Assembly: GCA_017410065.1 (NCBI GenBank)
Contig: JAFQRL010000041.1
Coordinates: 1-64,000 of the forward strand
Source: Clostridia bacterium
Lineage (GTDB): Bacteria; Bacillota; Clostridia; Oscillospirales; CAG-272
Direction of reading: 5' to 3'
Length of the DNA stretch: 64,000 bases
Position 1 is the stretch's first letter, and every line of letters begins with the position of its first letter. Under the pieces are notes generated by a model. It was not told the origin of the DNA. It searched no databases and saw only the letters and a program-made list of their open reading frames with translations. This document shows, piece by piece, positions 1-51,811 of the stretch. Position numbers and translations under genes: made by a program.

Positions 1-139
1 AAAAACTGACCAAGCGAGGCTTAGTCAGTCTTTCCGATTACTACCTAAAGGTAGCACATATTTAATTTGAATTGAACCGCCGTATGCCGAACGGCACGTA
101 CGGTGGTGTGAGAGGTGGATTAGTTTCTACCTACTCGAT
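1..139 (+). mobile_element. Group II intron, 3' end only
   Basis: The left edge is the tail of a group II self-splicing retroelement. Positions 74-107 fold as domain V: a long helix closed by GAAC, with the two-base bulge after the distal stem, and a CGC-type catalytic triad containing the expected G-U pair. Positions 109-136 fold as domain VI, in which A133 is bulged between a 7-bp helix (112-118 with 125-131) and a GAG/CTC base, the expected branch-point geometry about seven bases from the 3' end. The intron should end at about 139/140 after CGAT. A CGC triad is typical of class C introns but is not proof of class. The rest of the intron lies outside the window. Confidence 0.85.
3..65 (+). 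CDS. Group II intron maturase/reverse transcriptase, C-terminal tail (partial)
   Basis: The reading frame from position 3 gives 20 residues, including TKRGLVSLSDYY, and ends at TAA 63-65, nine bases before domain V. Group II intron-encoded reverse transcriptases commonly end with a similar motif (an RG-x-x-S-x-x-DYY type sequence) just upstream of domain V, and the placement is exactly as expected. The catalytic domains lie to the left of the window. Bases 6-28 in the same stretch also form an imperfect hairpin. Confidence 0.6.
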   Translation, partial: KLTKRGLVSLSDYYLKVAHI

Positions 140-30903: not shown

Positions 30904-30927
30904 TTTTTAGGAAAGAAGGTGAGCGTT

Positions 30928-33495
30928 TTGGCTGAAACTAAAGAAAAAAGATATGTGAGCGATAACGCTCAACTTATGGCTGAATGGGATTTTGATAAAA
31001 ATTCTCTACTTGGATACGAACCGCAAACAATAACATATGGTTCTGCTATTAAAGTTTGGTGGATATGTCAACAAGGACACAAATGGGAGGCATCACCAAA
31101 TCATAGAAGCAGAGGTAGAGGATGTCCTGAGTGTGCAAAAATTCAGAGCTTTATAACGAAAAGAAGAAATATTGTTGCTCGTCGCGGTTCGCTTTCGAGT
31201 AACAATCCCGATTTAGCTCTTCAATGGCATCCAACAAAAAACGCACCTCTAACCCCTAACGACATTTCAGTTAATTCAGCTGAGCGTGTTTGGTGGCTAT
31301 GTAAAAAAGGTCACGAATGGGATGCTCCTATCAACAGTAGAAATAGTGGCGTAGGTTGTCCTGTCTGCTCTGGGCATAAAATCGTTGTTGGAGTTAATGA
31401 TTTAGCAACCGTAAGACCAGACCTCGCGTTACAATGGCACCCGACCAAAAACGGAGAATTAAAACCAAGCGCGGTTACTGTTGGAAATGACAAAAAAGTT
31501 TGGTGGAAATGCGAAAAGGGGCATCAATGGCAAAGCCAAATCAACAACAGAACATCTGGATGCGGTTGCCCTTTTTGTTCGGGCAAGAAGGTTCTTGTGG
31601 GATACAATGATATTTCAACAATTATGCCGCAACTTGTAGCTGAATGGCATCCAAGTAAAAATGGAGATTTGATTCCGCAAAACTTTACAGTAGGATCTAA
31701 TAAAAAGGTTTGGTGGATGTGCAAAAAGGGGCACGAGTGGCAGGCTGCTATTTCGCATAGAACCAAAGGAAGAAGATGCCCCGTTTGTTTTGGAGAATCA
31801 AGAACAAGCTTTCCGGAGCAAGCTATATATTATTATCTTCGCCAGGTAACGACCGCTTTAAACCGATACAAGTTGAATTCACGCACAGAGATAGATATAT
31901 ATTTGCCTGATTATAAAATCGGCGTAGAATATGACGGTTTGTTTTTCCATAGTAGTGAAAAATCAGCAGAACGTGAAAAACGTAAACAAGATAAGTTGGA
32001 TAATTGCGGAATAACGTTGTTTCGAGTAAAAGAAAGCAATATTTTTTGCAATGGAATGGTAAGGGGGAGAGTTGTGTATGCAAAACCCGGAGCCAACGAT
32101 ATTGAGCTGGGTCTTGTTATGGAATCGCTGCTTGCGTGCATTAGTACCGAAACACCTTATTCGTTTGATATAAGCATTGATATTGCTAGAGATAGAAATC
32201 AAATATACGAGCAATACGTTCAAGGCGAAAAAGAAAAATCATTAGCAGTAGTTAATCCCAAACTAGCATCCGAGTGGCATCCAACAAATAACGGCAACCT
32301 GTTGCCTGATTATGTATCGGTTTTTTCAAACAAAAAAGTTTGGTGGCTATGTGATGAAGGTCACGAATGGCAAGCGGTCATAAATAGTAGACGTAACGGT
32401 GCAGGGTGCCCTTTTTGTTCAGGTCAACGAGCAATTGTTGGAATAAATGATTTGGCAACCGTAAATCCCGATTTAGCTTCGCAGTGGCACCCCAGTAAAA
32501 ACGGACAATTATCTCCGCAAAACGTAAAGGCAAGTTCGAATAGATTCGTTTGGTGGCTTTGCGAAGAAGGGCACGAATGGAAAGCGATGATTTATGATAG
32601 AAGTAACGGTTGCGGTTGTCCTATTTGTTCGGGGCACAAGGTGCTTGTAGGGTATAATGATTTAGCAACAACTATGCCAGCTCTTGCAAAGGAGTGGCAC
32701 CCAACAAAAAACGGCACCTTAACTTCGCGTGATATTACATCCGGATCGAGTAAAAGAGTTTGGTGGATATGCTCTGAAGGACACGAATGGCAAGCTGTTA
32801 TATCGAGTCGAAAATCCGGATATGGATGCCCCTATTGTGCAGGACAAAAGGCAATCACAGGATACAACGATTTAGCGACCGTTAACCCAATTCTCGCTTC
32901 CGAATGGCATCCAAATAAAAACGGAGCGATTTCGCCATCAAACATATCGGCAGGTACAAATAAAAAAGTTTGGTGGCTTGGAAAATGCGGTCACGAATGG
33001 GAAGCATCTATCGGTAGTAGAAATGCTGGCAACGGCTGTCCATATTGTGCAAGTCAAAAAATATTGGTTGGCTTTAACGATTTAGAAACGCTTAACCCTT
33101 CTCTTGCACGTGAATGGCACTCAACCTATAATGGAGCTGTAACGCCTCGTGATGTTATGCCAGGTTCTAATAGGAAAGTCTGGTGGCAATGCAGAAATGG
33201 TCACGAATGGCAAAATTCTGTTAACACTAGAAATCGCGGAAACGGTTGTCCTTATTGCGCTAATCAACTTGTCTTGATGGGGTATAACGATTTGCAAACA
33301 TTAAATCCTGAACTTGCACGACAATGGCATCCAACAAAGAATGGCGAGTTAACACCGCGTGATGTTATGCCTGGGTCTAACAAAAAAGCTTGGTGGATTT
33401 GCGAAAAAGGACACGAATGGGAGGCAGTTATTTCAAGCAGAAACAAAGGGGCAGGGTGTATGTTATGCTACCGTCAGTCCAGAAAAAAACATTAA
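30928..33495 (+). CDS. Ten zinc-ribbon modules with an internal PD-(D/E)XK nuclease
   Basis: 855 residues. Ten copies of a 65-70-residue module, four before and six after a nuclease domain. Each module has W-HP-T-K-NG, then K-VWW-x-C-x3-H-EW, then a basic S-R-x-x-G stretch and GCP-x-C, so one zinc per module is expected (Cys, His, Cys, Cys); this is the DUF4379-type zinc ribbon. Module 8 has WLGKCGH, so its first Cys is displaced. The middle domain (about residues 295-440) has SFPEQ, then EIDIYLPDYKIGVEYDG and a Lys-rich helix, like Vsr/DUF559-type nucleases. TTG 30928 is chosen because the GTG at 30919 overlaps the ribosome site. AT-rich compared with neighbours, suggesting transfer. Likely sequence- or structure-specific nucleic acid cutting; target unknown. 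Confidence 0.8.
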   Translation: MAETKEKRYVSDNAQLMAEWDFDKNSLLGYEPQTITYGSAIKVWWICQQGHKWEASPNHRSRGRGCPECAKIQSFITKRRNIVARRGSLSSNNPDLALQWHPTKNAPLTPNDISVNSAERVWWLCKKGHEWDAPINSRNSGVGCPVCSGHKIVVGVNDLATVRPDLALQWHPTKNGELKPSAVTVGNDKKVWWKCEKGHQWQSQINNRTSGCGCPFCSGKKVLVGYNDISTIMPQLVAEWHPSKNGDLIPQNFTVGSNKKVWWMCKKGHEWQAAISHRTKGRRCPVCFGESRTSFPEQAIYYYLRQVTTALNRYKLNSRTEIDIYLPDYKIGVEYDGLFFHSSEKSAEREKRKQDKLDNCGITLFRVKESNIFCNGMVRGRVVYAKPGANDIELGLVMESLLACISTETPYSFDISIDIARDRNQIYEQYVQGEKEKSLAVVNPKLASEWHPTNNGNLLPDYVSVFSNKKVWWLCDEGHEWQAVINSRRNGAGCPFCSGQRAIVGINDLATVNPDLASQWHPSKNGQLSPQNVKASSNRFVWWLCEEGHEWKAMIYDRSNGCGCPICSGHKVLVGYNDLATTMPALAKEWHPTKNGTLTSRDITSGSSKRVWWICSEGHEWQAVISSRKSGYGCPYCAGQKAITGYNDLATVNPILASEWHPNKNGAISPSNISAGTNKKVWWLGKCGHEWEASIGSRNAGNGCPYCASQKILVGFNDLETLNPSLAREWHSTYNGAVTPRDVMPGSNRKVWWQCRNGHEWQNSVNTRNRGNGCPYCANQLVLMGYNDLQTLNPELARQWHPTKNGELTPRDVMPGSNKKAWWICEKGHEWEAVISSRNKGAGCMLCYRQSRKKH

Positions 33496-33532: not shown

Positions 33533-33556
33533 ATTTACGTAAATAGTTTCACCGAG

Positions 33557-33685
33557 TGGTGCGGGAGGGGTATTCACCTACGGTGAAGATACTCACACTC
33601 TACGCCTGACAAGCGAGCTTGTCGATCTCCGAGTGGAGTATGCGAACCCCGCGACATTCGTCGCAGTGTCCGCTCCGACCGACTA
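33557..33685 (-). repeat. tRNA 3'-end fragment with a structured cassette in its T-loop (copy e)
   Basis: On the minus strand the segment ends in CCCC-TCCCGC-A-CCA (33557-33569), like a tRNA acceptor end with encoded CCA. The T-stem GGGG and TTCG lie at 33644-33651. Between them is a cassette of about 75 bases in which stem ATACTC-CACTC pairs with GAGTG-T-GAGTAT, a GACAAGC/GCTTGTC hairpin is apical, and TTCACC/GGTGAA forms a third. Upstream, GCGAC-GAAT-GTCGC forms another hairpin. There is no anticodon arm, so it is not a working tRNA. Confidence 0.75.
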
Positions 33686-33689
33686 CGTA

Positions 33690-33727
33690 AAAAATGCAGT
33701 TGCACCGAGCGGTGCAACTGCATTTTT
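33690..33727 (-). terminator. tRNA-Ser terminator
   Basis: Perfect 17-bp stem 33690-33706 with 33711-33727 and a four-base loop, flanked by A and T runs, immediately after the tRNA CCA. Confidence 0.9.
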
Positions 33728-33817
33728 GGCGCAGAGGGAGGGATTCGAACCCTCGTGTGGTGTTATCCACAAACTGATTTCGAGTCAGCCCCGTTATGAC
33801 CGCTTCGATACCTCTGC
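33727..33817 (-). tRNA. tRNA-Ser (anticodon CGA)
   Basis: 91 bases with encoded CCA. Acceptor stem GCAGAGG (5' at 33817) pairs with CCTCTGC; anticodon loop CTCGAAA gives CGA, which reads UCG; a long variable arm, as expected for class II tRNA, precedes the T-arm GAGGG-TTCGAAT-CCCTC; discriminator G. Its promoter lies about 280 bases upstream, past repeats. Confidence 0.95.
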
Positions 33818-34080
33818 ATAAATATGATGCAACAGAGTGCATCATATTTATGCAGAGCCCTGTGAGAAGTGGCTCAAGAGCTCTGCTCTTGGATCCGCTT
33901 CGCATATCCCACCCGAAGTTCGACAAGCTCGCTTGTCAGGCGCAGGGTGTGGATATATTCGCTGTGGCGAAATAACTCTGCTTGATGCAAACTGAAACAT
34001 TTAAAGATATGATGCAATAGTTTGCATCATAAATGCAGAGCCCTGTGAGAAGTGGCTCAAGAGCATTGCTTGATGCAAAC
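33818..34080 (+). repeat. Upstream tRNA-Ser repeats: 5'-half duplicates and cassette copy f
   Basis: The 20 bases next to the tRNA 5' end are repeated inverted across six bases (33812-33857). On the plus strand a 30-base segment starting GCAGAG and ending CAAGAGC, like the acceptor 5' strand and D-arm of tRNA-Ser, occurs identically at 33853-33882 and 34036-34065. The first is followed by a hairpin AAGAGC-TCT-GCTCTT and by the cassette at 33900-33973, and ends in CTCTGC (33977-33982), which pairs with its GCAGAG. The second lacks the cassette, as if deleted. TGATGCAAAC ends both. Confidence 0.8.
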
Positions 34081-50642: not shown

Positions 50643-50696
50643 AAATAGCAGAGGGCCATTCGCTTAATTATAAGCTTTTGACTCAGCCCCTTTTTT

Positions 50697-50800
50697 GGTC
50701 GGAATGACAGGGTATGCTTCACTACGTTACGCAGATACCGCAAGCGGTATGCGAACCTGCATTTTGCTATGCAAAACAGAACCAAATTGACACACCAAGC
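50697..50800 (-). repeat. tRNA-Pro 3'-end fragment with short cassette (copy a)
   Basis: TGGTCGGAATGACAGG (50697-50712) is identical, as the reverse complement, to the last 16 bases of tRNA-Pro including CCA. CCTG of the T-stem resumes at 50757. Between them, on the minus strand, ATACCGC-TT-GCGGTAT and CTGCG-TAA-CGTAG form two hairpins, a shortened form of the cassette. A TTTTGC-ATA-GCAAAA hairpin (50763-50777) precedes the T-stem. No anticodon arm. Confidence 0.75.
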
Positions 50801-50840: not shown

Positions 50841-50841
50841 T

Positions 50842-50973
50842 GGTCGGAATGACAGGATATTCGACTGTGGCGAAGATTCACACGCTCTGCGCCTTGAAAG
50901 CAAGCTTTCAGATCTTTGAGCGGCGAATGCGAACCTGCATCCGCTTCGCGAACAGGCTCGAATCGACAAACCA
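50842..50973 (-). repeat. tRNA-Pro 3'-end fragment with full cassette (copy b)
   Basis: TGGTCGGAATGACAGG (50842-50857) again matches the tRNA-Pro 3' end. On the minus strand GCAGG-TTCG (50930-50938) is followed by the cassette: ATTCGC-CGCTC pairs with GAGCG-T-GTGAAT, TGAAAGC-TT-GCTTTCA is the apical hairpin, and TTCG/CGAA the third. TTCGC-GAA-GCGGA forms a hairpin upstream. Homologous to copies e and f with many compensatory changes. Confidence 0.8.
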
Positions 50974-50983
50974 AACCCAAAGA

Positions 50984-51014: not shown

Positions 51015-51090
51015 TGGTCGGAATGACAGGATTCGAACCTGCGACATCGTGCTCCCAAAGCACGCGCGCTACCAACTGCGCTACATCCCG
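51015..51090 (-). tRNA. tRNA-Pro (anticodon TGG)
   Basis: 76 bases with encoded CCA. Acceptor CGGGATG (5' at 51090) pairs with CATTCCG (one G-U); D-arm GCGCAGTTGGTAGCGC; anticodon loop CTTTGGGAG gives TGG, reading CCN codons; T-arm GCAGG-TTCGAAT-CCTGT; discriminator A. Confidence 0.97.
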
Positions 51091-51575
51091 AAATTATTTT
51101 ATTGATTAGTAAATATTGGTTAGTAAGAAGTGCGCTTTGTCCGCCCCGTCCCGTCACATAGTCGTTTCGCGTCGCTCGGTACGCTCGCTTCTAAAACTCC
51201 TTGTTTTGGGGACTTCGCTTCGCATAAACGGTTATCAACCGTTTCTCGCTCGCTCACCCAAAGCACCGCGCTACAGGCTGCGCTACATCCCGAAATTATT
51301 TTATTGGTTAGTAAATATTGGTTAGTAAGAAGTGTGCTTTGTCCGCCCCGTCCCGTCACATAGTCGTTTCGCGTCGCTCGGTACACACGCTTCTAAAACT
51401 CCTTGTTTTGGGGACTTCGCTTCGCATAAACGGTTATCAACCGTTTCTCGCTCGCTCACCCAAAGCACCGCGCTACGGGCTGCGCTACATACCGAAATTA
51501 TTTTATTGATTAGTTAATATTGGTTAGTAAGAAGTGCGCTTTGTCCGCCCCGTCCCGTCACATAGTCGTTTCTCG
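51090..51575 (-). repeat. 202-bp tandem repeat carrying tRNA-Pro 5' halves
   Basis: About 2.4 units with an exact 202-bp period (anchors at 51090, 51292, 51494). Each complete unit ends, on the minus strand, with a near copy of tRNA-Pro bases 1-36, from CGGGATG through the anticodon (51257-51292 and 51459-51494), then departs into unrelated hairpin-rich sequence (AAACGGTT-GAT-AACCGTTT). The repeats lie between the promoter at 51629-51657 and the intact tRNA. Several open frames cross them, but they shift between copies and are not genes. Confidence 0.88.
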
Positions 51576-51628
51576 TCGCTCGGGAGACCGGATCTAGAAA
51601 GGTGGAGTAGATGAAATTTAGCCCTATT

Positions 51629-51657
51629 ATTATATCAAAGCTTTTTCGATTTGTCAA
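51629..51657 (-). promoter_or_regulatory. Consensus promoter for the tRNA-Pro transcript
   Basis: On the minus strand: TTGACA (51652-51657), 17-bp spacer, TATAAT (51629-51634). The leader before the intact tRNA is about 530 bases and contains both 5' halves. Confidence 0.88.
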
Positions 51658-51811
51658 GCCCTGCATTCCAAAATAATTGATAATGCATTCCAAAATAATT
51701 GATAATTGTCTTTGTTTAGGTCCACGTACTAAAATATAGCACCAAAAAATTATAATTATGAGTAGTTTTTAGTTTATTTTATATAAAAATATTAAAAGAA
51801 TAAAAAACATC

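What the first reader, a model, noticed from the sequence alone, without database searches (positions are those of the whole stretch)
33557..33982. Structured cassette inside tRNA T-loops, kept by compensatory changes
Copies e (33568-33651, minus), f (33900-33973, plus) and b (50856-50938, minus) share TTCGCAT, a long stem with a bulged T, an apical hairpin, and a third hairpin. Paired bases change together: the long stem is ATACTC-CACTC/GAGTG-GAGTAT in e, ATATCC-CACCC/GGGTG-GGATAT in f, and ATTCGC-CGCTC/GAGCG-GTGAAT in b. The apical stem is GACAAGC/GCTTGTC in e and f but TGAAAGC/GCTTTCA in b. In e and b, the flanks are the two halves of a tRNA T-arm plus acceptor end and CCA. This is covariation of the kind that marks a selected fold. 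It could be a mobile element targeting T-loops, an attC-like recombination site, or a tRNA-processing decoy.
Basis: seen in the sequence. Interest (0 to 1): 0.88.

Follow-up and report, generated by a model that had tools for sequence, protein, structure and literature searches.

The report
DNA hairpin repeats behind tRNA genes
In a genus of uncultured ruminant-gut Clostridia, many tRNA genes and at least one tmRNA gene are followed by a spare copy of their own T-arm whose loop has been replaced by the same elaborate hairpin; its paired bases evolve together in a way that points to folded DNA rather than RNA, and the repeat is not in Rfam and turned up in no paper we could search.

Summary
A covariance model finds the cassette in 57 of 69 genomes of the window's genus, but in only 6 of 197 sampled genomes of the order, the window's own included. 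No IMG/VR contig matches a strict pattern. It never breaks the working tRNA. It lies in a duplicated T-arm 75-150 nt behind an intact tRNA (17 anticodons) or tmRNA, past that gene's own terminator, singly or in tandem (mostly 160-200 bp). Pairing is real: 94% of cells paired against 75% shuffled. But within the cassette G.T (36) and A.C (35) mismatches are equally rare, while tRNA stems from the same loci show 67 against 3. So it is kept as DNA structure, not as an RNA fold. Unpaired bases and a one-base bulge are conserved, which suggests recognition. The decoy T-stem tracks its own species' tRNA (219 of 262 differing positions), implying local conversion or template switching. Neither Y1 transposase nor the one array-linked integrase is conserved with the repeats. 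Best reading: a new family of palindromic DNA repeats resident in tRNA tails, resembling attC or REP hairpins but failing their membership tests. A recombination site for an unidentified enzyme is not excluded.

The parts
33564..33651 (-). cassette copy e inside the decoy T-arm of the tRNA-Ser tail
   Evidence: R1 match 99.4 bits
33727..33817 (-). intact tRNA-Ser (CGA) gene that precedes copy e
   Evidence: ARAGORN and Rfam RF00005
33689..33726 (-). terminator hairpin of tRNA-Ser (AAAATGCAGTTGCACCGCTCGGTGCAACTGCATTTTTT)
   Evidence: read in sequence; part of inverted repeat I2
33652..33688 (-). degenerate inverted T-arm plus spacer hairpin (GCGACGAATGTCGC) ending in the decoy T-stem 5' strand
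   Evidence: read in sequence and compared with other tails
33536..33563 (-). displaced tRNA-Ser 3' fragment fused by deletion to the terminator 3' arm (source of the apparent CCA)
   Evidence: sequence comparison
33894..33980 (+). cassette copy f inside an inverted pseudo-tRNA-Ser, divergent from tRNA-Ser
   Evidence: R1 match 78.0 bits; about ten such divergent copies at tRNA-Ser genes elsewhere
33812..33857 (.). 20-bp perfect inverted repeat joining the tRNA-Ser 5' end to its inverted pseudo-copy
   Evidence: the repeat finder I4
50851..50938 (-). cassette copy b inside the decoy T-arm of the tRNA-Pro tail
   Evidence: R1 match 93.5 bits
51015..51090 (-). intact tRNA-Pro (TGG) gene that precedes copy b
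   Evidence: ARAGORN and Rfam RF00005
50976..51014 (-). terminator hairpin of tRNA-Pro
   Evidence: inverted repeat I2
50939..50975 (-). inverted T-arm and spacer hairpin of the tRNA-Pro tail
   Evidence: read in sequence
50841..50856 (-). direct copy of tRNA-Pro T-stem 3' strand, acceptor and CCA after copy b
   Evidence: direct repeat D2; 16/16 match
50696..50760 (-). third tRNA-Pro tail unit: decoy T-arm with a short hairpin insert (CATACCGCTTGCGGTATC) and acceptor + CCA
   Evidence: direct repeats D2 and D4, sequence

Best explanation
A family of palindromic DNA repeats resident in tRNA and tmRNA tails. Each unit (mostly 160-200 bp) consists of the tRNA's terminator hairpin, a degenerate inverted T-arm, a spacer hairpin, and a decoy T-arm whose loop is replaced by an ~80-nt cassette; tails may hold several units in tandem. 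SHOWN: position, anatomy, genus-wide distribution, Watson-Crick covariation with no excess of G.T over A.C, conserved unpaired bases and bulge, tracking of the tRNA's own T-stem, clustering of copies by tRNA gene across species. INFERRED: the pairing matters when the DNA is single-stranded or extruded (replication past a highly transcribed tRNA gene); hairpin-templated template switching and local conversion copy changes from arm to arm and from tRNA to decoy T-arm; the conserved unpaired bases and bulge are a recognition site for an unidentified DNA-binding or hairpin-processing protein, which would account for persistence over the genus. New tails arise by duplication of T-arm-to-terminator segments, so the working tRNA always stays intact.
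For: 57/69 genus genomes. 93 of 136 non-redundant copies are same-strand downstream of a tRNA with 17 anticodons; most of the rest lie at contig ends, behind missed or truncated tRNA-like genes, or diverge from tRNA-Ser; one is behind a called tmRNA. Cassette GT 36 v AC 35; tRNA control 67 v 3, Fisher p 5e-10; the covariance-model alignment would if anything favour GT. Bulge base present in 131/133 with free identity (mostly T/C/A), unpaired columns such as C8, A25, C31, C38, T39, G41, A139, G145 at least 93% identical while stems vary widely. Two adjacent pairs changed on both sides between otherwise near-identical tandem copies (L132), and one such pair in L126. Decoy T-stem equals own species' tRNA at 219/262 positions where orthologues differ, 22 equal the other species. 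Inserts cluster by tRNA gene: 51 changes v 77.8 shuffled, 0/200. Template switching is a documented source of instantaneous compensatory changes (PMC8794818).
Against: No binding protein or enzyme was identified. Between the closest tandem copies one-sided changes outnumber two-sided ones, so ordinary point mutation followed by selection also fits part of the data. Template switching alone would tend to erase the bulge and internal loops, so some selection is needed and its target is unknown. No transcription or ssDNA data.
Confidence: 0.55

Rival explanations
1. A single-stranded-DNA recombination or transposition site: a tyrosine or HUH recombinase recognises the folded cassette (extrahelical base, conserved loops) and the palindromic T-arm TTCGAA, and moves the cassette, or tail cassettes, between T-arms of tRNA and tmRNA genes.
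For: Copies lie between TTCG and AAT of a T-arm-like sequence, behind tRNAs of 17 anticodons and a tmRNA; structure kept as DNA with a conserved bulge; similar cassettes occur in tails of different tRNAs in one genome; a tyrosine integrase gene lies about 0.35 kb beyond the tRNA-Glu array of G000.
Against: No attC core (0/142) and almost no REP foot (2/142). Y1 transposase is absent from G000 and found above cut-off in 15/60 genus genomes, without obvious tracking of copy number. The array-linked integrase has relatives in only 8/69 genomes. Copies group by tRNA gene across species, i.e. little recent movement. No clean empty site was found.
Confidence: 0.2
2. Functionless by-products of replication at tRNA genes: template switching and slippage at palindromic terminators repeatedly duplicate tRNA 3' ends and correct the hairpins; nothing is selected.
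For: Palindromes pervade these tails (terminator, inverted T-arm, spacer hairpin); a sister genus has tRNA 3'-end copies with unrelated inserts; mismatch symmetry; two-sided adjacent changes.
Against: Many unpaired bases are conserved to 93-99% while stems vary widely, and the bulge is kept in 131/133 copies; neutral loops should vary at least as fast.
Confidence: 0.13
3. Scars of phage or ICE integration at tRNA T-loops: displaced attR 3' ends left after loss of the element, with the cassette as a remnant of the attP region.
For: Direct copies of tRNA 3' ends behind an intact tRNA are what such integration leaves (PMC9897764); tRNA and tmRNA are classical targets; distal acceptors are truncated.
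Against: One cassette at 17 anticodons and tmRNA with locus-specific terminators; no viral contig matches a strict pattern of it and no phage record matches the 33540-33990 region; regions between neighbouring arrays that were read hold ordinary host genes.
Confidence: 0.07
4. A structured non-coding RNA or tRNA-processing decoy transcribed by read-through from the tRNA.
For: Stable predicted RNA fold; terminators often follow units; covariation.
Against: No wobble tolerance on either strand; a terminator separates it from the tRNA; acceptor + CCA kept in only 5/68; no Rfam match.
Confidence: 0.05

Closest known systems
E. coli tyrT distal 178-bp repeats / rtT RNA (recalled from memory; no paper on it was found in the library)
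   Same: tandem units of similar length behind a tRNA gene, each containing a copy of the tRNA 3' end
   Different: one locus in E. coli and described as an RNA; here many tRNA genes across a genus, cassette inside the decoy T-loop, pairing not kept as RNA; no Rfam match in the window
Integron attC sites (PMC3053210)
   Same: imperfect palindrome of similar size (57-141 bp) functioning as folded DNA with extrahelical bases
   Different: no RYYYAAC/GTTRRRY cores, no gene cassettes, fixed in T-arm copies
REP/REPIN elements and TnpA-REP (RAYT) (PMC6006769, PMC8266576)
   Same: short dispersed DNA hairpins, long-stem type with bulge, many copies per genome, non-coding
   Different: no GTAG foot in nearly all copies, no RAYT in the genome, location tied to tRNA/tmRNA T-arm copies
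Partial tRNA genes left by integrative elements (PMC9897764)
   Same: truncated direct copy of the tRNA 3' end near an intact tRNA
   Different: no integrated element between the copies; conserved structured cassette in the loop
Template-switch-maintained hairpins (PMC8794818)
   Same: multi-base Watson-Crick compensatory changes apparently in single events
   Different: reported for RNA genes; here the structure itself shows no sign of RNA-level selection

Membership tests
Integron attC site | RYYYAAC and GTTRRRY core sites | tested here: not met
   0 of 142 copies with GTTRRRY, 1 with RYYYAAC
Integron attC site | folded single strand with extrahelical bases | tested here: inconclusive
   a bulged base is conserved in 131/133, but attC has two on one side (PMC3053210) and no folding assay was possible
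Integron attC site | integron integrase in the genome | not tested
   only the general Phage_integrase family was searched in G000 (8 matches)
REP / REPIN | GTAG or GTGG 5' of the hairpin | tested here: not met
   GTAG near the 5' foot in 2 of 142; GTGG not counted separately
REP / REPIN | RAYT (Y1_Tnp) in the host genome | tested here: not met
   none in G000, above cut-off in 15/60 of genus
rtT / tyrT repeats | tandem units of ~178 bp each carrying the tRNA 3' end behind a tRNA | tested here: met
   tandem spacings 119-311 bp, mostly 162-201; decoy T-stem 3' strands; feature list from memory
rtT / tyrT repeats | match to a known Rfam RNA family | tested here: not met
   no relevant Rfam match but tRNA at the gathering threshold, none meaningful at E<=5 around e and f
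Functional structured RNA | G.U pairs tolerated over A.C in stems | tested here: not met
   36 v 35 in cassette, 67 v 3 in tRNAs
Functional structured RNA | transcription | not testable with these tools
   no expression data
Integrative-element att scar | direct copy of tRNA 3' end behind intact tRNA | tested here: met
Integrative-element att scar | integrase or element linked to the repeats | tested here: not met
   integrase beside one array in G000, relatives in 8/69 genomes; host genes between arrays
Ordinary tRNA terminator | G+C hairpin followed by T run directly after CCA | tested here: not met
   each cassette lies beyond a separate terminator and is itself followed by T-stem sequence, not a T run

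The most novel reading that the evidence does not exclude
A previously undescribed ssDNA-hairpin recombination system that uses the universal T-arm of tRNA and tmRNA genes as its landing site: the cassette is the folded recognition site, and tails are captured tRNA 3' ends that keep the gene intact after each insertion.
Probability: 0.15. Interest if true: 0.85.

Novelty: new variant of a known kind. Interest (0 to 1): 0.62.

Why it matters
It is a well-replicated case in which textbook covariation, normally taken as strong evidence of a functional RNA, carries no sign of RNA-level selection; the G.T versus A.C count is a simple test that would filter such DNA hairpins out of RNA-discovery screens. 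It also shows a genus-wide repeat tied to tRNA and tmRNA T-arms and co-evolving with each tRNA, which offers a natural laboratory for template switching next to highly transcribed genes and a lead to a possible unknown DNA-hairpin-binding protein.

Tried and rejected
Insertion into the functional tRNA: rejected, intact tRNA upstream. Known RNA family: none in Rfam. Phage or viral origin: no match in phage records at blastn sensitivity nor to a strict pattern in viral contigs. Y1 transposase as mover: no link. Dedicated integrase: the one beside the tRNA-Glu array is sporadic. Gene cargo between arrays: ordinary host genes in two regions read. attC and REP motifs: absent or nearly so. Literature searches for tRNA-tail repeats found no prior description in the held library. 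Hits outside the genus (6 of 197 order genomes including G000) lie mostly on short contigs and may be binning errors; L106, L107, L109 and L112 do show a tRNA nearby.

Full report
What is there. In the window they are 33564-33651 (-), 33894-33980 (+) and 50851-50938 (-). The cassette runs from TTCGCAT to about GCGAAT(A): a long stem with a one-base bulge, an internal-loop region, an apical hairpin with the loop CTYG, and a third hairpin; T-stem strands close the whole as a three-way junction.

It is a family. blastn finds ten good copies in the window's own genome and, among the 40 genomes searched with it, copies in 17, all of the same genus. A covariance model (R1) finds it in 57 of 69 genus genomes, up to 18 copies each, and in 6 of 197 sampled genomes of the order including G000.

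Where it sits. Of 136 non-redundant copies, 93 lie on the same strand behind a tRNA gene of one of 17 anticodons; the first unit usually begins 75-150 nt after the CCA and further units follow mostly at 160-200 bp. About ten copies, like f, are in an inverted pseudo-tRNA upstream of tRNA-Ser. Most of the rest are at contig ends or behind tRNA-like 3' ends that ARAGORN missed; one is behind a called tmRNA (L082). Two (L098, L156) have no visible tRNA.

Anatomy of a tail: tRNA T-arm and CCA; terminator hairpin, whose stem in some loci continues through an inverted copy of the acceptor and T-stem; degenerate inverted T-arm; a spacer hairpin whose base is inverted T-stem / T-stem; then the decoy T-arm, TTCG[cassette]AAT, T-stem 3' strand, and usually a truncated acceptor fused to the next terminator. 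Acceptor and CCA survive in 5 of 68 first units. One genome without R1 hits (G008) has a tRNA-Thr tail of the same plan with only short perfect hairpins in the loop, and a sister genus (G088) has tRNA 3'-end copies with unrelated inserts, so tail duplication is wider than this cassette.

RNA or DNA? Covariation is overwhelming. But among cassette helices there are 36 G.T and 35 A.C cells against about 2,940 Watson-Crick ones. In tRNA acceptor and T stems from the same loci the figures are 67 and 3 (Fisher p 5e-10), and in the tRNA-derived T-stem closing the cassette 47 and 6. The MAFFT alignment of 24 copies, not fitted to the model, also shows no G.T excess. An A.C cell is a G.T cell on the other strand, so neither strand shows RNA-like tolerance. 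The structure is therefore most likely kept as DNA. Cells count sequences, not independent events, so the p-value is indicative.

Selection or mutation? Both seem needed. Near-identical tandem copies can differ by two adjacent pairs changed on both sides (L132) or by one such pair (L126), as hairpin-templated template switching would produce (mechanism in PMC8794818); but one-sided changes are commoner at the shortest distances. Unpaired bases, which no partner can template, are among the best conserved, and the bulge is kept in 131 of 133 copies with free identity. That argues for recognition by something.

Local co-evolution. The decoy T-stem 5' strand matches its own tRNA at 4.2 of 5 positions (2.4 for other tRNAs). 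Where the same tRNA differs between species the decoy follows its own species at 219 of 262 positions and the other species at 22 (pairs of species are not independent). Cassettes cluster by tRNA gene across species (51 changes against 77.8, 0/200 shuffles), so they are mainly inherited in place, with occasional exchange between loci.

Who could act on it? No Y1 transposase in G000 and no obvious tracking in the genus. A tyrosine integrase lies beside the tRNA-Glu array of G000 but has relatives in only 8 of 69 genomes. attC cores are absent and the REP foot nearly so. The enzyme or binding protein, if any, is unknown.

Verdict. A real family of DNA-level palindromic repeats tied to tRNA/tmRNA T-arm copies, undescribed as far as Rfam and the held literature show; not kept as an RNA, not inside working tRNAs. 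It works somewhat like attC or REP hairpins but is not a member of either by the tests made.

Noticed in passing
window 51065-51670: Three 202-bp tandem repeats just upstream of tRNA-Pro, each holding promoter-side sequence and the 5' half of tRNA-Pro broken in the anticodon loop by a palindromic insert; a 5' counterpart of the tail repeats.
   Followed up: partly
L018-L043 and L333-L362, tails of other tRNA genes: Other tRNA terminators are followed by a different palindromic array: hairpins separated by motifs such as GTGAAAT, GATGAAAT, AACATCATT or TATATCATC.
   Followed up: no
L006:1642-1801 and the tRNA-Thr tail in L019: A second dispersed palindromic repeat (GGTAGCGAAGCGGCACGAAGG...CCGAGCCGAAGCGAGAA) is nested in the apical part of a cassette and in a tRNA-Thr tail.
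   Followed up: no
L347, L353, L355, L362 (sister genus): Direct copies of tRNA 3' ends behind tRNAs with unrelated ~100-nt inserts; L353 shares GGGAGCAAC...GCGAGTCGCA with L357.
   Followed up: partly
window 30919-33495 (+): 858-aa ORF made largely of ten DUF4379 treble-clef zinc fingers, next to the tRNA-Ser tail.
   Followed up: no
window 75-139 (+): Match to group II intron (RF00029) near the edge of the window.
   Followed up: no
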